Shown piece after piece: positions 24,890 to 37,693 of a DNA stretch of 39,798 nucleotides. Under the pieces are notes generated by a model. The model worked only from the letters and a program-made list of their open reading frames with translations, was not told the DNA's origin and did not search any database. How positions within the stretch are numbered: the first letter of the stretch is position 1; each line of letters starts with the position of its first letter. This stretch comes from Butyrivibrio sp. Lineage in GTDB: Bacteria; Bacillota; Clostridia; Lachnospirales; Lachnospiraceae. A program made the position numbers and the translations under genes. Location of the stretch: contig JAGAAO010000001.1 in assembly GCA_017615275.1 (NCBI GenBank), positions 1 to 39,798 of the forward strand, written 5' to 3'.

Positions 24890-26731
24890 ATGAAACTTAG
24901 AATCAACAGTAACTTGATAGCAGTAGCTTCCCTACTGCTGATCTTGGTGGGAATTTACTTTCTGCTGGACAGAATAAATTCTCCGTATCAATATACGGAT
25001 TTATTTACGCTGGATGACGGATGGACCGTTTCATTAAACGGTAAGAAAATCGCTGAAACCCAGAGCCTTAAATCTGTTCAGATACCTGTTTTGAATAAAC
25101 ACGATCAATTAGTCTTAACAAGAGTTCTTCCCAACTTAGATACATATAATGCTCCCTGCCTATATTTTTACTCAAGGCACAGCATCGTTGATGTTTACCT
25201 GGAAACAGAAAAAGAAACCGAAATACCCAAAGGAAACAATCAGGTAGATATCAAAACCGAATCAAGTACTATTCTTATATATACATATGGGCGCGATCTT
25301 GAAGGCAAGACTTCCGAAGCCCCCAACAAATACAACAACGTTTCTTTGGAAGGATCCAGAGATAAGATAAATAAGCTTTCTTTTGCAAAAAACGGAAACA
25401 AAGAAAAAGTAATCAAAAAAACCCAGACTCTTAAGGTTGTACTAACCGCCACAGGCGATGCAGCCTTTTCTTCGGTGTCGCCATATATTATCGGCAGCCG
25501 TGTTACTGTTCTTTCATATCATCTCATCAACAATGCAATACATCTTTTCGCCGGAGTATTTCTCGTTATTTTGGGATTTGTTCTTATAATCATCTCGCCT
25601 TACATGTTCTTATACCACAACAAAGAGGCAAGACTTTTCTTCAGCGGATTTATTTCTCTCTTACTGGGCATCTTCATTCTGGCTCAGTTCGATCTCATTG
25701 ATATGCTCATAAATAACCCGCTGGTTGATTCATTCTGCGAATATGCTTCACTTACATGTATACCTATTGCGATCCTTGGCTATTTCGCTTCGATATTCAG
25801 AGGCAGAATAAAATCATTCCTGAATTTCCTTATGCTTTTGGACATTCTTCTTTTCTCGGGAATGACATTGCTCCATGTCCTGTCGATAATGCGATTCTCA
25901 AGAATGACGTCGTTTATTCAGGTATACATAATATCTGAAACTTTATTGGTCTTTGGTATCTTGATCGTAAACAGAAAGCAGTTCAAGGAAAGCGAGAACA
26001 GGAACCTCAATTCCGACCTGTTCTTCCTTATCGGTGCAATTACTTTCCTTATATTCTCTATAACCGATATCATAGCTTACGACGTCCACAAATATTCAAG
26101 CAACCGCGGTTACTTCAAGGGATACGGCAACGGATTTACTTTCGGTTCCGTTATATTTGTTTCATGCATGCTTATCAGTTATATGTTCTACAGTATTTAC
26201 AGTAGCAACATCACTTCTTTGCAGGAGCGAATGGCTGACCTTGCATACACCGATCCTCTGACAGGTCTTTCAAACAGAGCCCGTTGCGAGCAGATCATGG
26301 GTATTATTTCTCATGAGAGAAGCATCTACTCTATCATCAGTATCGACCTTAACAAGCTGAAAAAGGTCAACGATACTTACGGACATCACGAAGGAGACCG
26401 CTTGATCACAGGATTTGCAACAATTTTGACCGAATGTTTCTGGGATGCAAACCTTATCGGACGTATGGGCGGAGACGAATTTATTGTTATCCTGCTCGGC
26501 GATCACGCTAATAGCTGTACCAAGAGGCTTCACGAGCTCTATTCCATTCTTTCCGATTGGAACCGCAAGGAGCAGGTATTCCAGTACAGTGCTTCCTACG
26601 GCTATGCTTACAGCTACGAAGTACCCAACAGTTCAGCAAGTGAAGTATACATGCTTGCCGACTCACGTATGTACGAAATGAAGAAAGAACATCACGGACG
26701 TAAAGAAATGGAGGAAAAGGCCAATGCGTAA
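24890..26731 (+). CDS. Membrane diguanylate cyclase with 7TM-DISM-like sensor
   Basis: 613 residues. TM1 about 8-27, an extracellular beta-rich domain to about 200, then about seven hydrophobic helices from 205 to 440 in a 7TMR-DISM-like layout, and a GGDEF domain from about 455. Catalytic features are present: DPLTGLSNRARCE, DLNKLKKVNDTYGHHEGD and RMGGDEFIVIL. The RxxD inhibitory site that normally lies five residues before GGDEF is absent (WDAN there), so product feedback is probably lacking. It would make c-di-GMP from GTP at the membrane in response to an external signal. AGG lies eight bases before ATG 24890. The stop overlaps the next cyclase gene. Confidence 0.9.
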   Translation: MKLRINSNLIAVASLLLILVGIYFLLDRINSPYQYTDLFTLDDGWTVSLNGKKIAETQSLKSVQIPVLNKHDQLVLTRVLPNLDTYNAPCLYFYSRHSIVDVYLETEKETEIPKGNNQVDIKTESSTILIYTYGRDLEGKTSEAPNKYNNVSLEGSRDKINKLSFAKNGNKEKVIKKTQTLKVVLTATGDAAFSSVSPYIIGSRVTVLSYHLINNAIHLFAGVFLVILGFVLIIISPYMFLYHNKEARLFFSGFISLLLGIFILAQFDLIDMLINNPLVDSFCEYASLTCIPIAILGYFASIFRGRIKSFLNFLMLLDILLFSGMTLLHVLSIMRFSRMTSFIQVYIISETLLVFGILIVNRKQFKESENRNLNSDLFFLIGAITFLIFSITDIIAYDVHKYSSNRGYFKGYGNGFTFGSVIFVSCMLISYMFYSIYSSNITSLQERMADLAYTDPLTGLSNRARCEQIMGIISHERSIYSIISIDLNKLKKVNDTYGHHEGDRLITGFATILTECFWDANLIGRMGGDEFIVILLGDHANSCTKRLHELYSILSDWNRKEQVFQYSASYGYAYSYEVPNSSASEVYMLADSRMYEMKKEHHGRKEMEEKANA

Positions 26732-28412
26732 ATTCTTATCCTTCATTTCCATATCATTTATATTTATTGCGATCACAGCCTTTATCTTCCACTTCACCTT
26801 CGGACAGACGGAGCGTAAATTTCCTCTGTTCAAATTGGAAAAAGGCTGGGTCATCACCTACAGAAACCAGCAGTATAGAAATACGAACGTAACCCGCTTG
26901 AGCGAACAGCTTGGCATTACTTTTTCAAGAGGCGACAAAATAACGCTGAGTCTGCCGCGTCAGCTTCAGGGTAATAGTCTGCCGTTCCCTTATCTTGTAT
27001 TTAAGACCAAGAACTGCGCTTACGAAGTATTACTTGACGGTTATCCTATAAAGGAAGAAAACAAATCATATATTAAGAACGGAATTTTTATAGGAAGCGG
27101 TTACAACATTGTTCCCCTGGGAAAAGATTATGCCGGCAAGAAGTTATCAATTGTCCTCTACGTATCTGAAAATGATACTAAGGTCAACCTCATAACTCCG
27201 CTACTCGGCGACTTTGACGACATTTACAGAAGCCTGTTAAGGAGTGCTGCTTTCCCGCTTCTGACCGGAATGTTCCTTATCGTATTCGGATGTATATTCC
27301 TGTTAATCTCACTCGTACTGTATATGAAATCATCCGGAGTATTTACCCAGGTAGTTTGCTCGATCATAGTAATTCTTCTTGGAATATGGCTTATCACAAC
27401 ATTTGACTGCACTGCTTTCCTATTTGATAAACCAACGACCACATTTTTAAATTATGTTTCGCTGTACCTGTTTGTGCCATTTAGTTATATCCTCGTATTT
27501 AACCTGCACAAACACACCAATATATCCGTTATCGCAGTACTTGGTATATCTTCTATAATATTCAGCATATTGTTCATGACCATGCATGTATTGAACAAAG
27601 TGCATATACACCACTTCCTGATGCCGTACTATCTGCTTTCACTGCTTGCGTTCTTTACACTTATCATGTACGACATTAAGGACCTTAGGAGCAAGACCAA
27701 GAACCCGTCCACACAAATACTTATGTTTGGACTTACACTTGTCTGCATAACCCTTATTTTGACGGCATTTATTGATGTATTACAAAGAAATGTCGATTGC
27801 AGAGACAGCTTTCTTATGTCGGTATGTGTTCCGTCCGCATCATTGTTCTTTGTAATAACGCAGCTGCTTAACCACTTCGTATTCATGACGAAGTTCTACG
27901 CTCAGAGAAAAGAGTATGCATCCCTTACTCAGATAGCTTTCGAGGATTCGCTTACTCATCTTCCCAACAGAGCAAGCTGCGATCAGAAGTTGTCAGAGCT
28001 TGATAAGTCTAAAAAAGACTTCTGTATCGTCAGTCTCGACCTTAACGGTCTAAAAGAAGTTAACGATAACGACGGACATCCCGCCGGTGATAAGCTTATT
28101 CAGGGCTTTGCCGATGCGCTGTATGATGTGGTTGAGGATAAAGGAACCTGTTACAGAATAGGTGGTGACGAATTCCTTGCCATATTCGACAAGATTGAAG
28201 CATCCGCTCTGGATGACCTGTTAAAACAACTTGATGATAAGCTTCTTGAGCTTGATGCAAAAGATCCTGACGTAAACCACAGTGTATCTTACGGCTATGC
28301 ATTCCGCTCCGAAACAACCGAACAAGATGTTCACTCGGTAGTTATGCTTGCGGATAAGAAGATGTACGAAAGTAAGCGTAAACACTACGCAGCGATCAAC
28401 AAGCACAGATAA
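26724..28412 (+). CDS. Second membrane diguanylate cyclase, overlapping paralogue
   Basis: 562 residues with the same architecture as its upstream neighbour: TM1, extracellular domain to about 160, a bundle of hydrophobic helices to about 395, then GGDEF. Active-site motifs are EDSLTHLPNRASCD, DLNGLKEVNDNDGHPAGD and RIGGDEFLAIF; no RxxD inhibitory site is present (EDKG at that position). The ATG at 26724 overlaps the previous stop by eight bases (AATGCGTAA), with GGAGG nine bases upstream, so the two are translated together. The extracellular domains differ strongly, while both start with a similar W-V/T-I/V-x-Y/L pattern (GWTVSLNGK versus GWVITYRNQ). Confidence 0.9.
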   Translation: MRKFLSFISISFIFIAITAFIFHFTFGQTERKFPLFKLEKGWVITYRNQQYRNTNVTRLSEQLGITFSRGDKITLSLPRQLQGNSLPFPYLVFKTKNCAYEVLLDGYPIKEENKSYIKNGIFIGSGYNIVPLGKDYAGKKLSIVLYVSENDTKVNLITPLLGDFDDIYRSLLRSAAFPLLTGMFLIVFGCIFLLISLVLYMKSSGVFTQVVCSIIVILLGIWLITTFDCTAFLFDKPTTTFLNYVSLYLFVPFSYILVFNLHKHTNISVIAVLGISSIIFSILFMTMHVLNKVHIHHFLMPYYLLSLLAFFTLIMYDIKDLRSKTKNPSTQILMFGLTLVCITLILTAFIDVLQRNVDCRDSFLMSVCVPSASLFFVITQLLNHFVFMTKFYAQRKEYASLTQIAFEDSLTHLPNRASCDQKLSELDKSKKDFCIVSLDLNGLKEVNDNDGHPAGDKLIQGFADALYDVVEDKGTCYRIGGDEFLAIFDKIEASALDDLLKQLDDKLLELDAKDPDVNHSVSYGYAFRSETTEQDVHSVVMLADKKMYESKRKHYAAINKHR

Positions 28413-28619: not shown

Positions 28620-28648
28620 TTGACAGATGTATCTTACCATGTTATAAC
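28620..28648 (+). promoter_or_regulatory. Sigma-A promoter of the lipoprotein cassette
   Basis: TTGACA (28620-28625), exactly 17 bases, TATAAC (28643-28648). A leader of about 60 bases leads to the first lipoprotein ATG at 28716. No comparable promoter was seen in the short gaps between the six genes, so they are likely one transcript. Confidence 0.8.
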
Positions 28649-28715
28649 TGTATTAATTCAACTAGTACAGATAGTGCTGTGCCATTATCTTTGTGTTAAT
28701 AGGGAGGATTAGACT

Positions 28716-29333
28716 ATGAAGAAAAGAACTACGACAGCAATTTTATTAGCAACAACAATGATGTTCGCACTTGTGGGATGCGGAAAGAGTTACGAAATAT
28801 CTTCCGATGACTCGACGCCCGCAGCAGAAGACAGCAAGGATAAAGGCAATGCTGAAAATGAACCAAAAGCCCCTGTTGATCCCACTACTATTGCGGAATC
28901 TTCGATTGAATATAAAGGCGAGACGTTCTCTCCCTTTGAAGATCTCCAAGATTCACTTGATAAGGCAGCCTCAGTTGGTGAACTTTCCTCTGATTCTCCT
29001 GTACAGATCGGTGAAGGTAGCTGCAACTACACATATTATTACGATGTAATAGATGCAGAAAACAGCGAAAGTGGTCTTTCTATCCACACGACAGATGATA
29101 ATAATGACAAACAGATCATTATGCAGGTGTCAAGTTTTGATCCCAACGCAAAAACCACTAAAGGCATTCATCCCGGAAGCACAAAAGATGAGCTTTTTGC
29201 AGCATACGGCGAACAGAAGCCTGATGAATACGGCTTTTGTTCCTATGATTTCGATACTTACGGTCTCGTATTCAAAATATCGGATGACAAAGTGACAATG
29301 ATTGCTTCAGAAACGATGAATTACCTTAACTAA
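28716..29333 (+). CDS. Small lipoprotein 1 of cassette (BamE/BLIP-like repeat family)
   Basis: 205 residues. GGGAGG lies eight bases before the ATG. The signal peptide MKKRTTTAILLATTMMFALVGC ends in a lipobox with Cys22. A polar, acidic linker follows to about residue 65, then a globular domain starting EYKGETFSPFEDLQDSLDKA and containing GIHPGSTKDELFAAYGEQ near residue 160. The G-x-x-x-G-S-T/S-x-x-E-L-x-x-A-Y-G-E pattern recalls the BamE/SmpA and BLIP fold, whose members bind other proteins; this is a motif-level resemblance only. Same family as the genes at 29352, 30048 and 33013, and the most diverged in the linker. Confidence 0.85.
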   Translation: MKKRTTTAILLATTMMFALVGCGKSYEISSDDSTPAAEDSKDKGNAENEPKAPVDPTTIAESSIEYKGETFSPFEDLQDSLDKAASVGELSSDSPVQIGEGSCNYTYYYDVIDAENSESGLSIHTTDDNNDKQIIMQVSSFDPNAKTTKGIHPGSTKDELFAAYGEQKPDEYGFCSYDFDTYGLVFKISDDKVTMIASETMNYLN

Positions 29334-29351
29334 TAAAAGGAGGGAATGACT

Positions 29352-30014
29352 ATGAAGAAAAGAACAACGACAGCAATTTTACTCGCAACTACAATGATGT
29401 TCGCACTTATGGGATGTGGTGCGGCTTCTACAGATACAGATTCTTCATCGGATGCTGCTTCCGTAGCGGAAGTTGATACTGATACAGAATCAAATACATC
29501 AGAAGAGACAGCTGACACAGGCTCAGACAGCGCTTCTGCAGACTCTTCAGATGCAGCCGACACTGCTACTGCCTCTGCTGACGATTCATTTACATATAAG
29601 GGTGAAACATTCTCTGTTCTGGATGATTTCCAAACTACTCTGGATAAGATAAACGCTGTGGGAACTCCTGCCCCAAAGACACCTGTAGAATATGATGATG
29701 GCTCGAAATTATACGATTATGATGTGACCGAAGATTCTTGTAACTTTTATATGGAAACAGCTATTAATAACGGGACAGAAACTGTTGGTCATATCGGCAT
29801 TATGGATCCTGACTCAAAAACAGCTAAAGGAATAAGTGTCGGAAGTACAGTAGAAGAACTTACTTCTGCCTACGGTGAACCAACCGAAAAAAAAGGCAAT
29901 GGCTCTATCTATGCGTATAAGTTTGATAAATCCAGCATTTATTTTGTCACAGACAACGGAAAAGTTATCGGAATTGATTACTTTACCTCAGATTTTGTTA
30001 ATGCCAGAAGTTGA
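29352..30014 (+). CDS. Small lipoprotein 2 of cassette
   Basis: 220 residues from ATG 29352, eight bases after GGAGG; the ATG at 29346 is too close to that site. Lipobox LMGC. The linker (residues 25-80) is almost purely Ser, Asp, Ala and Thr, typical of a surface spacer. The domain begins FTYKGETFSVLDDFQTTLDKINAVG and has GISVGSTVEELTSAYGEPTEKK near residue 175. It is 18 bases after its neighbour and nearly identical to the next gene in the signal and linker, so the two arose by recent duplication. Confidence 0.85.
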   Translation: MKKRTTTAILLATTMMFALMGCGAASTDTDSSSDAASVAEVDTDTESNTSEETADTGSDSASADSSDAADTATASADDSFTYKGETFSVLDDFQTTLDKINAVGTPAPKTPVEYDDGSKLYDYDVTEDSCNFYMETAINNGTETVGHIGIMDPDSKTAKGISVGSTVEELTSAYGEPTEKKGNGSIYAYKFDKSSIYFVTDNGKVIGIDYFTSDFVNARS

Positions 30015-30047
30015 TACTTATTTGAATAAATTAAGGAGGAAATGACT

Positions 30048-30713
30048 ATGAAAAAGAAAACAACGACAGCAATCATACTCGCAACTACAATGATGTTCGC
30101 ACTTATGGGATGTGGTGCGGCTTCTACAGATACAGATTCTTCATCGGATGCTGCTTCCGTAGCGGAAGTTGATACAGATACAAACTCAGATACAGAAAGC
30201 ACCGAAACAACGGACGACACAAGCTCAGACAGTGCTTCTGCAGACTCTTCAGACGCAGCCGACACTGCTACTGCTTCTGCTGACGATTCATTTACATATA
30301 AGGGTGAAACATTTTCAATTCTTGATGATCTGCAAACTACGGTGAATAAGATTGATGCCGTAGGAAAGCCTTCTCCCAACTCCCCTATAGAATGTGAGGG
30401 CGGCACAAAAATATACAGCTATGATGAAACAAAATGCGATTCCGACTTTTTTATGGACACATTTATTAATAACGGAACGTTAACTGTATCGCAGATCTCC
30501 CTTATGGGCTCAAATGTAAAAACATCCAAAGGAATCGGCATTGGAAGCACAGTGGAAGAACTTACTTCTGCCTACGGTGAACCAACTGTCAAAGCAGACT
30601 CATTCTATAATTATGAGTTTGATAATTGTGCCCTCAGTTTCGACACCAAAGACGGCAAAGTATTTGTAATCTATTACTTTAACTTGGATTTTTACAATGC
30701 CCGAGTTAAATAA
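30048..30713 (+). CDS. Small lipoprotein 3 of cassette
   Basis: 221 residues from ATG 30048 (AAGGAGG eight bases upstream). Lipobox LMGC, Ser/Asp/Thr/Ala spacer, and domain FTYKGETFSILDDLQTTVNKIDAVG with GIGIGSTVEELTSAYGEPTVK near residue 178. It shares a 99-base identical run with the preceding gene (30077-30175 versus 29381-29479), but its central domain is clearly different. Ligand or partner unknown. Confidence 0.85.
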   Translation: MKKKTTTAIILATTMMFALMGCGAASTDTDSSSDAASVAEVDTDTNSDTESTETTDDTSSDSASADSSDAADTATASADDSFTYKGETFSILDDLQTTVNKIDAVGKPSPNSPIECEGGTKIYSYDETKCDSDFFMDTFINNGTLTVSQISLMGSNVKTSKGIGIGSTVEELTSAYGEPTVKADSFYNYEFDNCALSFDTKDGKVFVIYYFNLDFYNARVK

Positions 30714-30761
30714 TACAAGTTCCCCTGAAATTCTCGCCTCACAATTATGGAGGAACATTGC

Positions 30762-32984
30762 ATGATAAAAAACATTTTACTTAATAAAAAAACTATCTGC
30801 TCCATACTTACCTTTACCCTTCTTGCCACTGCTATTACAGGCTGTGGCAAGAGTAAAGATACTTCAAAGAAAATCGACGATCCTCTAAATCCTGACGTAT
30901 CCACTATGCTAAGTAACTCTAAGACTATGTCTAAGGACTATATCTTTAAACAGACCGATTATGAAGGCATTCTCAAAAAAGGTGACTATGTTCAGTCCCT
31001 TGAATATATCGGAGGCAAAGCAAGAGCCATAGTTTTGGGCAAAGACAACATATACAGATGTATCTCTGTTAACACAGATGGTTCCGATGCACAGTCTTTT
31101 GATCTTCCGATCGACGGAAAAGAAATTTCGCAAATCTTGTGCAATTCGGATACAGACGGAAATATTTACGCATTTTACTACACGGATACTTCTTGTTTTA
31201 AAAAGTTTGATAATACAGGCAATGAAGTTCTTAGTAAGACACTCGATTTTGATATCTACGATATGACTTGGAGCGAAAAATACGGACTTGTCCTTAATAC
31301 TTCAAGAGGAATCGAAACATATAACGATCAGAGCGGATCTTCAGTTGTAATAGATATAAAAAAGATTCAGAGTACATTTGATTCGGATTACTTTATGCTC
31401 CATAAAAGCTCAGATGATCAGTTTTTTATAGATGTGACAAATTCTGATGGAGTACCTGTGTTAGCTTCGGTTGATCTTGATAATAAATCGTTTGGTAAAA
31501 CAAGTAAGACCTGCTCGGAAAGAGGCTACAGCTTTCAAAGCGGTGAAGGATATGATCTTTATGCAGGGGACTATGACGGAATATGCGGCTATGACTATGA
31601 ATCGGACAAAATGACCAAACTGCTTGATCTTGATGATTCGTGTATAGACAGATACTGCTTTTTGGACTGGGTTGCAATAAGCGATAAGGAATTATTTGCT
31701 GTAACCAGTGATTTTGATTCCAACCTGTTTTTTTCCTCTTTTACAAAAGTAGATCCCGCAGATGTTCCGGACAGAACAATGCTTACGCTTGGCGGCGCAT
31801 GTTTCACTGTAGATGTAACGCAGGCTGCAAACATTTTTAATAAATCAAATGATAAGTACAAGATAAAAGTAATTGATTATGCAGATTCTTACCCTGACAG
31901 TGACATCGATGAGATTTTACAGGCATTTAACCAGGATATTCTTACAGGAAACACTCCGGATATCCTATGTTTCTCAAATTATTTTGCACCGAACCTTGAA
32001 AGTTATGCAAACAAAGGGGTATTGTTGGATCTTTCATCTTCGTTTGAAAAAGGCGGTGCGCTTGGCGATGTAGAAATCCTTCCAAATATTTACGAGATGA
32101 TGAAAACAGGTGACAAAGTATATTCTGTTATTCCTTCATTTGTATACAGTACTCTTCTGATGAAGGAAAGCGTTGCCGGCGGCAAAACATCTCTTACATT
32201 ACAAGATTATGAAGACCTGAAACTCAAAGAGACAATGGATGCAAATACATTTATTGACAACAGTATTCAAGCCGCAGGTGATAAATTCATTGATTGGAAA
32301 AATAAGAAATGTAATCTTAATTGTCCTGAATTTGTGGAAATTCTTGAGTTTGCCAAAAGGTTAAACGGGGACAAAAAGCCATCCGACAAATCGGAAAATG
32401 AAGGCGTTGAAGTCGCGGATGAACTTCCGGAAATTAATAGTAACGGTATAGTCTGCGATCAGGATATATATGGATTTATCTCTTTTGCAGATATTGAACA
32501 AAGTGAGTTTAAGGATAAAGCTGCTATAATGGGCTTCCCTAATAATTACGGCGAAACCACTACAATAATCACACCTTACAACCAGTTGTGTGTAAGCAGT
32601 ACGTCCAAAGCACCCGAAGGGGCACTTGAATTTTTAAAGTGCTATTGCACGAATACATCCATAAATAGTGGCTCAACTTTCCCTTCAGATAAGAATCTTT
32701 TTGAATCATATATGAAGAAAATAACAGAGCCTCCGGCTTCGGAAGATGATGCTACCGTTTATACCAATTTCCACGAGGTAAGATTGGATCCTCTTCCTGC
32801 GGATGAAGCTCAGAAGCTCTACGACAGCATTCTTTCATGCAAAGCAATGCATAGGCTGGATTCACAGCTTAACGTTTTCATTGAGGAAGAAACCGCCGCT
32901 CTCTTCTCAGGCCAGAAGTCAGCCGAAGAAATTGCGGAGATACTTGATAACAGAATACGCACATATCTTAATGAACAGAACTAG
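30762..32984 (+). CDS. Large lipoprotein A: propeller-like domain fused to solute-binding domain
   Basis: 740 residues from ATG 30762, eight bases after GGAGG. Lipobox ITGC near residue 28. After a short linker, residues about 45-345 are repeated beta-strand segments (YRCISVNTDGSDAQSFDLP, NIYAFYYTDTSCFKKFDNTGN, YDLYAGDYDGICGYDYESDKM) that look like a beta-propeller. From about 350 a family-1 solute-binding protein follows: ANIFNKSNDKYKIKVIDY, FNQDILTGNTPDILCFSN, GVLLDLSSSFEKGG and MKTGDKVYSVIPSF. No permease or ATPase adjoins. Paralogue of the gene at 33693. It may sense or capture a solute rather than import it. Confidence 0.82.
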   Translation: MIKNILLNKKTICSILTFTLLATAITGCGKSKDTSKKIDDPLNPDVSTMLSNSKTMSKDYIFKQTDYEGILKKGDYVQSLEYIGGKARAIVLGKDNIYRCISVNTDGSDAQSFDLPIDGKEISQILCNSDTDGNIYAFYYTDTSCFKKFDNTGNEVLSKTLDFDIYDMTWSEKYGLVLNTSRGIETYNDQSGSSVVIDIKKIQSTFDSDYFMLHKSSDDQFFIDVTNSDGVPVLASVDLDNKSFGKTSKTCSERGYSFQSGEGYDLYAGDYDGICGYDYESDKMTKLLDLDDSCIDRYCFLDWVAISDKELFAVTSDFDSNLFFSSFTKVDPADVPDRTMLTLGGACFTVDVTQAANIFNKSNDKYKIKVIDYADSYPDSDIDEILQAFNQDILTGNTPDILCFSNYFAPNLESYANKGVLLDLSSSFEKGGALGDVEILPNIYEMMKTGDKVYSVIPSFVYSTLLMKESVAGGKTSLTLQDYEDLKLKETMDANTFIDNSIQAAGDKFIDWKNKKCNLNCPEFVEILEFAKRLNGDKKPSDKSENEGVEVADELPEINSNGIVCDQDIYGFISFADIEQSEFKDKAAIMGFPNNYGETTTIITPYNQLCVSSTSKAPEGALEFLKCYCTNTSINSGSTFPSDKNLFESYMKKITEPPASEDDATVYTNFHEVRLDPLPADEAQKLYDSILSCKAMHRLDSQLNVFIEEETAALFSGQKSAEEIAEILDNRIRTYLNEQN

Positions 32985-33012
32985 ACAATATTTAAACAAC
33001 AAGGAGATGCCT

Positions 33013-33657
33013 ATGAAAAAGAAAACAACAGCAGCAATTTTACTCGCAACTGCTTTGATGTTCGCACTTGTGGGATGCGGCGCAGCATCAGATGAATCCG
33101 CAAATGAAACGGTCGAAATTACAACAAAAGAATCCGATAAGGACACAAATGCAGAAAATGAAACTACAGATGCAGACACTGATGCCGATTCTAAGGACAC
33201 GCAGGAATCATCCGATACTCCCGCTTCTGTAAGCGATGCGGAAATTACATATAAGGGAGCATCATATTCTCCTCTTGAGGATCTTCAAACCGCCCTTGAT
33301 AAGATAAATTCCGTAACTAAGCCCGACCCGGATTCTCCGCTTGAAATGGACGAAAAAAACTGTGCATACTATTATGATTCCCAAAAATTCTGTATTTTCA
33401 CTTTTAATTATAATGACACAGAAACAATTTCAACAATTTATTCTGAGGATCCCGAAACAAAAACCTCCAAAGGAATCGGTCCCGGAAGTTCAAAGGATGA
33501 ACTCATCGCTGCATACGGCGAACCGACCAAAGTGATTGATGACAGTTATCTTTATAAATTTGATGGTTACTATCTGAATTTCATGTTAGAAGGCGATAAA
33601 ATACGCGGTCTATCTACAAACCATGCTGCCTTTGATACTTGTGAACTGTATGAATAA
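33013..33657 (+). CDS. Small lipoprotein 4 of cassette
   Basis: 214 residues from ATG 33013 (AAGGAGAT upstream); the same frame is open for 70 codons before this, but that part overlaps the previous gene. Lipobox LVGC, then an acidic Thr/Asp/Glu spacer. The domain begins ITYKGASYSPLEDLQTALDKINSVT and has GIGPGSSKDELIAAYGEPTKV near residue 165. It lies between the two large lipoproteins, so each large gene is preceded by at least one small one. Confidence 0.85.
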   Translation: MKKKTTAAILLATALMFALVGCGAASDESANETVEITTKESDKDTNAENETTDADTDADSKDTQESSDTPASVSDAEITYKGASYSPLEDLQTALDKINSVTKPDPDSPLEMDEKNCAYYYDSQKFCIFTFNYNDTETISTIYSEDPETKTSKGIGPGSSKDELIAAYGEPTKVIDDSYLYKFDGYYLNFMLEGDKIRGLSTNHAAFDTCELYE

Positions 33658-33692
33658 CTTCTAATCGGTATTTATATAATGGAGATCTGACT

Positions 33693-35885
33693 ATGCTAAA
33701 GAAAAAGTTTTTTACCAAAAAAGCTGTAAGCACCGTACTTTCATTTTCAATCCTTGCCACAACTGTAACAGGTTGTGGTAAAGGCAATGCGGGCAAAACC
33801 GGTAATATAGCACAGGACAATAATTCTACCGATGCCAATGTTCTTTTGGATAATGCACAGAAAATGTCCAAAGACTACGTTTTTAAACAGACCGTTTACG
33901 ACGGAGTCTTTGAAAAGGGTGATTATCTGAAATTTCTTAACTACATCGGAGACAAAGGAACAGCCGTTGCCATTTCTGAAGAAGGAAAGCTAAAATGTAT
34001 ATCATTTAATAAAGACGGCTCGGATATAAAGTCTTTTGATATTCCGCTTGATGAAAACGCTGTAGCAGGAGCTTCTTTTGCAATGGACAAAGACGGAAAC
34101 CTCTATGTATCTGATGCTACTCACTTAAGCAAATATGATGCCGAAGGAAAAGAGCTTCTAAGCAAAGATACAGGCGCTATTATCAACAATATGACATGGT
34201 CCGAGAAATATGGTCTTGTACTCAATACTGCCGATGGAATCGGAACCTATGACGAGCAGAACGGTTTCAACAAGATCATCGACAGCAAAAGTGTTCAGGA
34301 TAAGCTTGGTAATGATACGATCTGTATTTGCAAAGGATCAGGCGATCAGTTTTTCCTTTATACAGACTCCTATGACAATCCGACGAATCTGGTAAAGATT
34401 GATCTTGATAATAAATCGGTTGGCGAACTGAGTGGAGCAATTAAAGATCTTCAATTTGATTTCTTCGGCGGCGAAGGCTACGATCTTTACGCAAGAGACG
34501 GCTACGCACTTTACGGATATGACAGCGCATCAGATAAATTTACTATGCTGCTTGATTACCAGGATTCCGATCTGAATCCTTTTGATGTAAGAAACCCTGT
34601 AGCAGTAAGCGATAAGGAATTTTTTGCAATATCTATGGATAACGATCTTAACTGCAGCCTTACTTCTCTTGCGAAAGTAAATCCCGAAGATGTTCCTGAC
34701 AAAACACTTATAACCATGGGTGGTGCTCAGTTTACTATAGACGTATTTATTAACACTGCAAATTTCAATAAATCAAATGATAAGTACAAAATAAAGATTG
34801 TTGATTTCACAAGTACTTATCCTGATGCCAAAACCATGCCGGATATGATACAGGCATTTAATCTTGATATTGTATCCGGAAAAGTGCCGGATATTCTGTG
34901 CCTTTCAAGTTGGTTCAATCCGAACATTGAAAATTACGCAAATAAGGGAATCCTGCTTGATCTTTCTCCTCAATTTGAAAAAGGCGGAGCTTTTGAAAAT
35001 CTGGACATCCTTCCGAATGTATACGAGATGATGAAGACAGGCGACAAAGTTTATTCCGTTGTCCCGTCATTTGTAATCGATACCGTTGTAATGCGAGAAA
35101 GCATCGCCAAAGGTAACACATCTCTTACAATAAAGGATTGTGATGAACTGATAAAAAGTAAGAATGTCGATTACAATGATGCTTTTGGATTGCTCGATAG
35201 AACGCTATTTATTGAAAAAGCAATTACATACAACGGTAACAAGTTTATAGACAGGCAAAATAAAAAATGTGACTTAAACAATCCCGAATTCATTGAAATA
35301 TTAAACTTTGCAAAGAATCTTCCCGAGGAAAAAGAGTATTCCGACGATTTTGAAACATTATACGTCGATAACAAATCTCTCTTTTATGATATCGGTATCG
35401 GAAATTTTAATGAATTCAAACGCCTAAAAAATGTTGTGTTTAATGAAAACCTTGCACTGTTAGGATTTCCTAATAACAATGGCGACAATAAAGGATTCTT
35501 ATGTCCCGAAACTCAATTTTGTGTAAGTAGTAAGATTGCTGCTCCCGAAGGCGCGTATGAATTCATAAATTACATGTTCAAACTGGGATCAGAAAATAGT
35601 AAATATACTTTTCCTTCAGAAAAAACAGCATTTGAAAGTGTTGTAAAGAAAGCTTCCGAGCCACCTGCATCAGATGATCCGTTGGCAAAACTGGATCCTC
35701 TTTCACCTGAGGAAATTAAGACATTTTCTGATTACATTCTTTCATGTACAGTGACGAGTGCATCCGATCCGACACTTAATAACATTCTGTCTGAGGAAAC
35801 TTCGGCATTTTTTGCAGGTCAGAAATCTGCAGAAGAAGTCGCCGATGTGCTAAATAACAGAATAACCACGTATTTGAATGAATAA
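33693..35885 (+). CDS. Large lipoprotein B: propeller-like domain fused to solute-binding domain
   Basis: 730 residues; GGAGA upstream of ATG 33693. Lipobox VTGC near residue 28. Same plan as its paralogue at 30762: MSKDYVFKQTVYDGVFEKGDYLKF then a propeller-like half, followed by a solute-binding half with FNKSNDKYKIKIVDF, FNLDIVSGKVPDILCLSSWF, GILLDLSPQFEKGG and MKTGDKVYSVVPSF. The C-termini also match (SGQKSAEEIAEILDNRI versus AGQKSAEEVADVLNNRI). Divergence is spread over the whole length, unlike the recent copying seen for small lipoproteins 2 and 3. It ends the cassette at a strong terminator. Confidence 0.82.
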   Translation: MLKKKFFTKKAVSTVLSFSILATTVTGCGKGNAGKTGNIAQDNNSTDANVLLDNAQKMSKDYVFKQTVYDGVFEKGDYLKFLNYIGDKGTAVAISEEGKLKCISFNKDGSDIKSFDIPLDENAVAGASFAMDKDGNLYVSDATHLSKYDAEGKELLSKDTGAIINNMTWSEKYGLVLNTADGIGTYDEQNGFNKIIDSKSVQDKLGNDTICICKGSGDQFFLYTDSYDNPTNLVKIDLDNKSVGELSGAIKDLQFDFFGGEGYDLYARDGYALYGYDSASDKFTMLLDYQDSDLNPFDVRNPVAVSDKEFFAISMDNDLNCSLTSLAKVNPEDVPDKTLITMGGAQFTIDVFINTANFNKSNDKYKIKIVDFTSTYPDAKTMPDMIQAFNLDIVSGKVPDILCLSSWFNPNIENYANKGILLDLSPQFEKGGAFENLDILPNVYEMMKTGDKVYSVVPSFVIDTVVMRESIAKGNTSLTIKDCDELIKSKNVDYNDAFGLLDRTLFIEKAITYNGNKFIDRQNKKCDLNNPEFIEILNFAKNLPEEKEYSDDFETLYVDNKSLFYDIGIGNFNEFKRLKNVVFNENLALLGFPNNNGDNKGFLCPETQFCVSSKIAAPEGAYEFINYMFKLGSENSKYTFPSEKTAFESVVKKASEPPASDDPLAKLDPLSPEEIKTFSDYILSCTVTSASDPTLNNILSEETSAFFAGQKSAEEVADVLNNRITTYLNE

Positions 35886-35905: not shown

Positions 35906-35942
35906 AATACGGGCGTGAGAAATGTTTTCTCACGCCCGTATT
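35906..35942. terminator. Bidirectional terminator between cassette and proS
   Basis: A 16-bp stem (ATACGGGCGTGAGA... with ...TCTCACGCCCGTAT) with a three-base loop, A-rich on the left flank and T-rich on the right. It separates the convergent lipoprotein cassette and proS. Confidence 0.9.
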
Positions 35943-37442: not shown

Positions 37443-37693
37443 TTTTCTTCAAAAAGAAAAGAATCCTCAAATCCCCTAACAGGGACCGAAGATTCTCGGC
37501 GGTACCACCCTATTTAAACCACGCAGACTCTGCTGTGGTCTCACTCAATTTAACCCTTAACGCGGGGGACGTCGTATTTTCATACGAAGCTCCAAGGTAG
37601 GTTCGCTGTTTATACGTAAAAGCCTCGCACCAACGGCTCTCTCTCTGAAACGCTTACGCAGTTACTGATCCTCTTCATCGCCTTATTATTTTA
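37443..37693 (-). promoter_or_regulatory. T-box leader of proS
   Basis: Reading the minus strand: GATGAAGAGGATCAGTAA (stem I base), AGAGAG then CCGTTGGTGCGAGGC (stem I distal motifs), the specifier region GCGAACCTACC with CCU (37599-37601) flanked by GAA and ACC as is usual, and the T-box AGGGTGGTACCGCC (37498-37511). The T-box UGGU bulge matches a tRNA ending ACCA, the discriminator seen in tRNA-Pro here. The final GAATCTTCGGTCCC...GAGGATTC stem (37461-37497) followed by TTTTCTTTTT is the terminator. Uncharged tRNA-Pro should stabilise the antiterminator and switch proS on. Confidence 0.93.

What the first reader, a model, noticed from the sequence alone, without database searches (positions are those of the whole stretch)
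28716..35885. Six-gene lipoprotein cassette with alternating small and large paralogues and no transporter
A single strong promoter leads into six genes in one direction with gaps of 18-48 bases, all encoding lipoproteins. Four are small paralogues with a shared AYGE(P) domain; two are large propeller-plus-solute-binding paralogues. The order is small, small, small, large, small, large. No permease, ATPase, kinase or enzyme is included, which is odd for solute-binding proteins. I infer a surface array in which the small proteins may bind or modulate the large ones. Two diguanylate cyclases lie just upstream on the same strand.
Basis: partly seen in the sequence, partly recalled or inferred. 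Interest (0 to 1): 0.72.

Follow-up and report, generated by a model that had tools for sequence, protein, structure and literature searches.

The report
Surface lipoproteins sharing a transporter's switch
Six neighbouring genes in a rumen Butyrivibrio make surface-anchored proteins with no transporter beside them, but they carry the same DNA switch as an unusual transporter operon elsewhere in the genome, which suggests that both belong to one cell-envelope response.

Summary
In detail: six + strand lipoprotein genes, ordered small, small, small, large, small, large, gaps 18-48 bases, one promoter, a terminator-like hairpin. The reading is only partly right. The large proteins (propeller plus MalE-type domain) are dispersed paralogues of a protein usually encoded beside MalF-, MalG-, HlyD- and MacB-like genes: in 28 of 29 genus genomes whose neighbourhoods I labelled and 14 of 20 loci of other genera. 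Only 8 of 59 small-gene matches adjoin a large gene, so a fixed small-large complex is not supported. The new link is regulatory: TGTAYTA-N7-TARTACA abuts the cassette's -10 box and occurs exactly 6 times in the genome (reversed control 0): here, before the GntR gene heading the transporter operon, before three other small loci and before an LprI-type lipoprotein operon. Ten species with small genes carry 5-7 exact sites each; 52 of 53 sites read precede genes I could assign, mostly envelope-type. I infer a YtrA-type GntR envelope regulon; inducer and small-protein task remain inferred.

The parts
28620..28648 (+). Promoter: TTGACA, 17-base spacer with TG before the -10, TATAAC
   Evidence: 11 of 12 consensus bases; a like promoter before the first small gene in 6 of 6 genomes aligned
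28649..28669 (+). Operator TGTATTA-N7-TAGTACA, directly after the -10, over the expected transcription start
   Evidence: 1 of 6 exact sites in the genome, control 0; only site in the window; same layout before the GntR gene of the transporter operon
28716..29333 (+). S1, small lipoprotein, 205 aa
   Evidence: one family with S2-S4
29352..30014 (+). S2, small lipoprotein, 220 aa
   Evidence: first 92 codons 90% identical to S3 in protein (dS 0.24 against 0.93 in the rest)
30048..30713 (+). S3, small lipoprotein, 221 aa
30762..32984 (+). L1, large lipoprotein, 740 aa: propeller plus solute-binding domain
   Evidence: Pfam SBP_bac_1 3.7e-9; in one clade (SH-aLRT 100, quick tree) with L2 and the larges beside small genes in G069, G036 and G004
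33013..33657 (+). S4, small lipoprotein, 214 aa
   Evidence: model with mean pLDDT 85 or more in every block of ten from 81 to 200; best fold match YjgB/DUF4309
33693..35885 (+). L2, large lipoprotein, 730 aa: propeller plus solute-binding domain
   Evidence: model pLDDT 85.6; best solved match CbpC, E 1.6e-16; profile match 9.7e-17
35906..35942 (+). Terminator-like hairpin after L2
   Evidence: 17-pair stem
24890..26731 (+). Diguanylate cyclase 1, syntenic neighbour
   Evidence: GGDEF 4.6e-29; also upstream of the small genes in G069, G004, G005 and G023
26724..28412 (+). Diguanylate cyclase 2, syntenic neighbour
   Evidence: GGDEF 4.7e-27

Best explanation
The cassette is an outlying operon of a regulon run by the small YtrA-type GntR repressor that heads the hybrid ABC operon on contig C16 of the same genome (GntR, ATPase, ABC-2-type membrane protein, MalF- and MalG-type permeases, HlyD-type adaptor, MacB-like surface domain, then 7 tandem large genes, one of them propeller only). 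A GntR dimer sits on TGTAYTA-N7-TARTACA next to the -10 box and blocks transcription; an envelope signal releases it (inferred). The transporter and a set of surface lipoproteins are then made together (co-regulation inferred from shared operators; no expression data). Large proteins most likely bind a ligand at the surface, as extra or alternative binding proteins for the transporter encoded in trans, its MalF-MalG pair perhaps driven by the one MalK-type ATPase found in the genome (inferred). Small proteins are single-domain, DUF4309-like surface proteins that multiply and diversify in arrays; their most likely role is to bind or shield something at the wall (inferred, weakest step).
For: Operator: 6 exact sites in G000, control 0; the window, C16 GntR, C3, C4, C10 and C66 sites stand before the genes named. 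With spacers of 4-10 allowed in G000, G004 and G028, exact matches have spacers of 7 (6, 6, 5) or 6 (4, 2, 2) only; reversed control 1, 2, 2. Ten small-bearing genomes: 58 exact sites, control 4; 14 other genus members: 14 sites, control 2. Of 53 of the 58 sites read: small family 23, a 103-110 aa lipoprotein 5, transporter GntR 5, amidase 9, LprI-lipoprotein operon 3, ATPase plus FtsX/MacB permease 3, a protein of about 1000 aa 4, unassigned 1. Two other YtrA-like GntR genes of G000 (C2, C25) have 6-base spacers, a third (C16:127837) has TGTATAT-N7-ATATACA; no exact site with spacer 4-10 lies within the loci of the remaining four. Of 19 core operon heads with a GntR gene, 16 have the N7 site within 220 bases of the called start, 2 inside an over-long called ORF and 1 (G024) with one mismatch. 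In G030, outside the small-bearing set, an orphan large gene starts 87 bases after a site. Larges are under purifying selection (dN/dS 0.15-0.28 in comparisons with dS below 1). One MalK-type ATPase without a recognised permease pair beside it; MalG keeps an EAA-type loop, MalF a degenerate one (by eye).
Against: No DNA-binding, expression or ligand data. The operator was found at this locus, then tested on other sites. It has one mismatch at the orthologous locus in G004, G005 and G069 (by eye). With one mismatch allowed genome-wide, signal equals control (9 and 9). In G030 one of 3 sites precedes none of the families searched. Three of the 53 sites (L241, L245, L258) also have an MCP-like gene diverging 134-199 bases away, which fits a sensory reading as well. 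The protein of about 1000 aa is called surface-type only on a SpaA match under the cut-off. Larges have few Trp (2-4 in five proteins), unlike typical sugar binders (recalled). The small fold match is of low coverage (TM 0.40 and 0.54).
Confidence: 0.62

Rival explanations
1. Surface array: the small lipoproteins bind or modulate the large ones, and the six proteins work as a stand-alone complex without transport.
For: Adjacent, one promoter, both families with lipobox signals; small-large pairs also in G004, G036 and G069.
Against: Large genes are absent at the same site in G005 and G023; arrays of 5-9 small genes without a large gene in the stretches fetched from four genomes; permeases sit with the large family elsewhere.
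Confidence: 0.12
2. Sensory module: the lipoproteins present ligands to receptors, feeding chemotaxis and the two neighbouring diguanylate cyclases.
For: In G069, G004 and G023 a solute-binding protein and an MCP stand between the cyclases and the small genes (MCPsignal 2e-25 and 6.7e-26 for the first two); the cyclases keep the site in five genomes; three amidase sites (L241, L245, L258) have an MCP-like gene on the other side.
Against: The solute-binding protein and MCP pair is missing at the site in G000 and G005; the window has one operator only, downstream of both cyclases; the other 5 sites of G000 have no gene labelled cyclase or MCP downstream.
Confidence: 0.12
3. The large genes are plain orphan sugar-binding proteins that feed an unrelated sugar importer, and the shared operator reflects a regulator other than the C16 GntR.
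For: Best solved match is a sugar-binding protein, CbpC; several YtrA-like GntR genes exist in G000.
Against: Three other GntR genes have a different spacing or half-site and none of the loci of the others holds the N7 site; 10 of the 14 genus members outside the small-bearing set carry exactly... one exact site or, in G003 and G030, two and three, and three carry none.
Confidence: 0.12

Closest known systems
YtrA-subfamily GntR regulators with an ABC transporter operon (B. subtilis ytrGABCDEF; S. aureus PmtR)
   Same: A short GntR protein (134 aa, PF00392 5.8e-13) heads an operon with an ATPase and a membrane protein, with a palindromic site at its promoter; ytr is induced by lipid II cycle inhibitors (PMC12772383, abstract and passages seen).
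   Different: Such regulons mostly consist of one ABC operon (PMC4494728, passages seen); here 5-7 exact sites per small-bearing genome, most before lipoprotein genes. Subfamily assigned by length and look of the protein, not by a tree.
MalE-type (CUT1) solute-binding proteins
   Same: C-terminal domain by fold and profile (CbpC, Lmo0181); MalF- and MalG-type permeases in the core operon.
   Different: An N-terminal propeller of about 24 strands, HlyD- and MacB-like partners, and many copies without permeases.
DUF4309 (YjgB) and CAP-associated N-terminal domains
   Same: Two-repeat alpha-beta fold; 4ygt is the only match with E under 0.001; CAP_assoc_N under the cut-off (1.2e-4 on S4).
   Different: About 15% identity; arrays of up to 9 genes; function of DUF4309 not known to me (one paper holds the word, listing seen).
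Tandem lipoprotein clusters (lpl) of Staphylococcus aureus
   Same: Tandem paralogous lipoproteins (PMC4470592, listing and start of abstract seen).
   Different: No sequence comparison made; here tied to a GntR-type operator.

Membership tests
YtrA-type GntR regulon | Short GntR protein with HTH and small C-terminal part | tested here: met
   134 aa, PF00392 5.8e-13 at residues 19-81
YtrA-type GntR regulon | Regulator gene heads an ABC operon with a palindromic site at its promoter | tested here: met
   exact N7 site in 18 of 19 core heads, one mismatch in the other
YtrA-type GntR regulon | Same site at the cassette promoter | tested here: met
   28649-28669, exact
YtrA-type GntR regulon | Regulator binds the site and represses | not testable with these tools
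   needs EMSA and a gntR mutant
CUT1 ABC importer binding protein (large) | Two-lobed MalE-type domain and lipobox | tested here: met
CUT1 ABC importer binding protein (large) | Encoded with MalF and MalG permeases | tested here: not met
   not in the window; met by the core relatives
CUT1 ABC importer binding protein (large) | Binds a sugar | not testable with these tools
   no ligand data
DUF4309/CAP_assoc_N (small) | Pfam match above the curated cut-off | tested here: not met
   best CAP_assoc_N 22.3 bits against 29.3; no DUF4309 match listed
DUF4309/CAP_assoc_N (small) | Same fold | tested here: inconclusive
   4ygt E 9.7e-4, TM 0.40 and 0.54

The most novel reading that the evidence does not exclude
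The large proteins, MalF-MalG, the HlyD-type adaptor and the MacB-like surface domain form one new kind of envelope machine of Lachnospiraceae, an importer-type permease pair with a secretion-type adaptor and propeller-bearing receptors, and in the Butyrivibrio hungatei group its GntR has become a master switch that also deploys diversifying small lipoproteins, a wall amidase and an LprI-type lipoprotein as a wall-defence or wall-recycling response.
Probability: 0.3. Interest if true: 0.78.

Novelty: new variant of a known kind. Interest (0 to 1): 0.6.

Why it matters
YtrA-type regulators are described as mostly controlling one ABC operon (PMC4494728, passages). Here one looks like a multi-operon envelope switch that has spread to arrays of surface lipoproteins in one clade of Butyrivibrio. 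The operator gives a ready, testable handle on lipoproteins of unknown function, and the core operon joins importer-type and secretion-type parts in a way that I found no paper about in the open-access library searched.

Tried and rejected
Small-large partnership by gene order: rejected as the general rule. The promoter block TGTTATAANTGTATTAATTCA as a repeated regulon motif: in G000 2 hits with up to 3 mismatches against 1 in the control, one of them this locus; in 14 other genomes 5 hits, at the sites of small genes in G004, G005, G023, G036 and G069. The palindrome inside it was the informative part. Operator with one mismatch allowed: 9 sites against 9 in the control, so only exact matches were counted. 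Rfam on the window at gathering scores: a T-box and a tRNA, nothing at the cassette. PDB profile search with the small family: best E 0.32. The pdb_via library was not available. Complexes of small and large proteins were not modelled: the structure tool takes single proteins. Paper searches; no listed title or abstract described this cassette or regulon; passages were read in PMC5080381, PMC4494728, PMC12772383 and PMC6344614 only.
Full report
What is there. Six genes lie on the + strand between 28716 and 35885 in the order small, small, small, large, small, large, with gaps of 18, 33, 48, 28 and 35 bases. All six proteins have a signal peptide and a lipobox cysteine (by eye). A promoter, TTGACA-17-TATAAC, lies at 28620-28648, and a terminator-like hairpin follows L2. 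A like promoter stands before the first small gene in the six genomes aligned (G000, G069, G023, G005, G004, G036), also in G036, where the genes lie at another chromosomal site.

The proteins. L2 was modelled from 25 sequences at mean pLDDT 85.6: about 24 strands at residues 64-328, then a two-lobed binding domain. The best solved match is the sugar-binding protein CbpC, by fold (E 1.6e-16, TM 0.73 by target length) and by profile (9.7e-17). S4 was modelled from 8 sequences; after a low-confidence linker it has a well-predicted domain of two helix-plus-sheet repeats. Its only fold match under E 0.001 is the DUF4309 protein YjgB. In comparisons with dS below 1, larges have dN/dS 0.15-0.28 and smalls 0.22-0.49; S2 and S3 share a nearly equal 5' part (dS 0.24 against 0.93), which looks like conversion.

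Where the large family belongs. The genome holds 11 full-length large genes: 2 in the window, 6 on C16, 2 on C2 and 1 on C26, plus a propeller-only copy on C16 and a distant relative on C93. At E 1e-40 the genus search found the family in 74 of 79 genomes. I labelled large-gene neighbourhoods of 6-20 kb in 29 of these genomes, G000 included; short flanks of other genomes that came were not used. In 28 of the 29 a large gene adjoins MalF-, MalG-, HlyD- and MacB-like genes (in G069 MalF lies beyond the stretch). The exception is G066, where I fetched 1 of 6 copies. By locus, 23 of the 40 loci have this setting and 17 do not. Nineteen heads of the operon show GntR, ATPase, ABC-2-type protein in that order; G001, G002, G017 and G018 have other genes there. 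In the family search 25 of 199 genera, own genus included, have a homologue at E 1e-35 (200 genomes). Of 20 such loci fetched, 14 have all four partners, 4 some of them (L189, L196 and L199 lie at or near the end of the stretch; L201 has weak matches), 2 none. So the lack of a permease is a trait of this outlying locus, not of the family. In the tree, the five larges that neighbour small genes form one clade (SH-aLRT 100, quick search) inside a branch that mixes operon and orphan copies.

Where the small family belongs. At E 1e-12 small genes occur in 11 of 79 genus genomes, 59 matches in all; G077 has one weak match, the other ten are G000, G004, G005, G023, G028, G036, G047, G050, G069 and G070. 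By position 8 of the 59 adjoin a large gene listed, in four genomes; a ninth, in G028 on C9, lies about 7 kb from one. Between the second diguanylate cyclase and the ProS gene, G069 has SBP, MCP, S, S, L; G004 has SBP, MCP, S, L; G023 has SBP, MCP, S, S and no large (a gene on the other strand lies between the cyclase and the SBP); G005 has S alone. G028, G047, G036 and G070 have arrays of 9, 6, 5 and 5 small genes with no large in the stretch.

The switch. Directly after the -10 box of the window promoter lies TGTATTA-N7-TAGTACA (28649-28669), the only such site in the window. The same layout stands before the GntR gene of the transporter operon on C16 and in relatives: of 19 core heads, 16 have it within 220 bases of the called start, 2 (G003, G068) inside an over-long called ORF, and 1 (G024) with one mismatch. 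Exact matches to TGTAYTA-N7-TARTACA number 6 in G000 with 0 in the reversed control, 58 in the ten small-bearing genomes with 4 in controls, and 14 in 14 other genus members with 2 in controls. With spacers of 4-10 allowed in three genomes, the 25 exact matches have spacers of 7 (17) or 6 (8) and no other length; reversed controls 1, 2 and 2. With one mismatch allowed in G000 the control equals the signal. I read 53 of the 58 sites; the 5 left out lie beyond the outer edge of stretches holding the core operons of G023, G047, G050, G069 and G070. By nearest labelled gene, 52 of the 53 precede: the small family 23, a 103-110 aa lipoprotein 5, the transporter's GntR 5, a protein with an N-acetylmuramoyl-L-alanine amidase domain 9, an operon with an LprI-type lipoprotein 3, an ATPase with an FtsX/MacB permease 3, a protein of about 1000 aa with a SpaA match under the cut-off 4. 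One (L255) has a 256-aa lipoprotein that passes as small at E 1e-3 but not at 1e-4. Pfam was run on one or two members of each of the amidase, LprI, FtsX and 1000-aa classes; the rest were assigned by phmmer. Three amidase sites (L241, L245, L258) also have an MCP-like gene diverging on the other side. Over the 67 sites scanned, taking the better strand, 40 have a promoter of at least 10 of 12 bases with a 17-base spacer whose -10 ends within a base of the operator. Outside the small-bearing set, G003's second site precedes a 214-aa protein matching the small profile (103 bits), and of G030's three sites one is the core head, one precedes a large gene by 87 bases, one precedes nothing I could label.

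Which regulator. G000 has seven other GntR-like matches to the C16 protein. Those on C2 and C25 have a 6-base spacer and the one at C16:127837 has other half-sites. The other four were not examined in detail; their loci hold no exact site with spacer 4-10. The C16 transporter GntR is the one with the 7-base type, so it is the best candidate. This is inference from sequence.

How it most likely works. The GntR dimer blocks the promoters by covering the start site; an envelope signal frees them. B. [quoted passage not shown] aureus answers to phenol-soluble modulins (PMC5080381, passages seen); amidase and LprI members fit an envelope role. Larges would bind a ligand for the transporter in trans. 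One gene with a MalK OB-fold was found in the genome, beside a DUF624 protein and no recognised permease pair; it could drive MalF-MalG. The task of the small proteins is the weakest step.

Limits. No expression, binding or ligand data; the genome is 85% complete; five core sites were not read; the operator definition came from this locus before being tested elsewhere.

Noticed in passing
L044:1317-5888 and relatives: Operon joining MalF- and MalG-type permeases with an HlyD-type adaptor and a MacB-like protein (342-557 aa), kept across genera of the family (14 of 20 loci complete).
   Followed up: partly
L047, L084, L085, L088: Orphan large genes stand next to genes for an XRE-type regulator with a hydrophobic C-terminal part.
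   Followed up: no
L081, L083, L123: In relatives a solute-binding protein and a chemotaxis receptor are encoded between the diguanylate cyclases and the small genes; absent from the window.
   Followed up: partly
L241, L245, L258: An MCP-like gene diverges from the amidase gene across the operator, 134-199 bases away.
   Followed up: no
window 37478-37687, minus strand: T-box leader before the ProS gene (Rfam RF00230, 116.5 bits).
   Followed up: no
window 29352-30713: S2 and S3 share a nearly equal first 92 codons but divergent domains (dS 0.24 against 0.93), a sign of conversion.
   Followed up: partly
L270, L271, L095, L096, L100: A second operator type with a 6-base spacer before other YtrA-like GntR genes; in L095, L096 and L100 an ATPase, a further gene and an orphan large gene follow.
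   Followed up: partly
L260: In G070 the ATPase and FtsX genes after the operator are read as several short pieces, so they look broken there.
   Followed up: no
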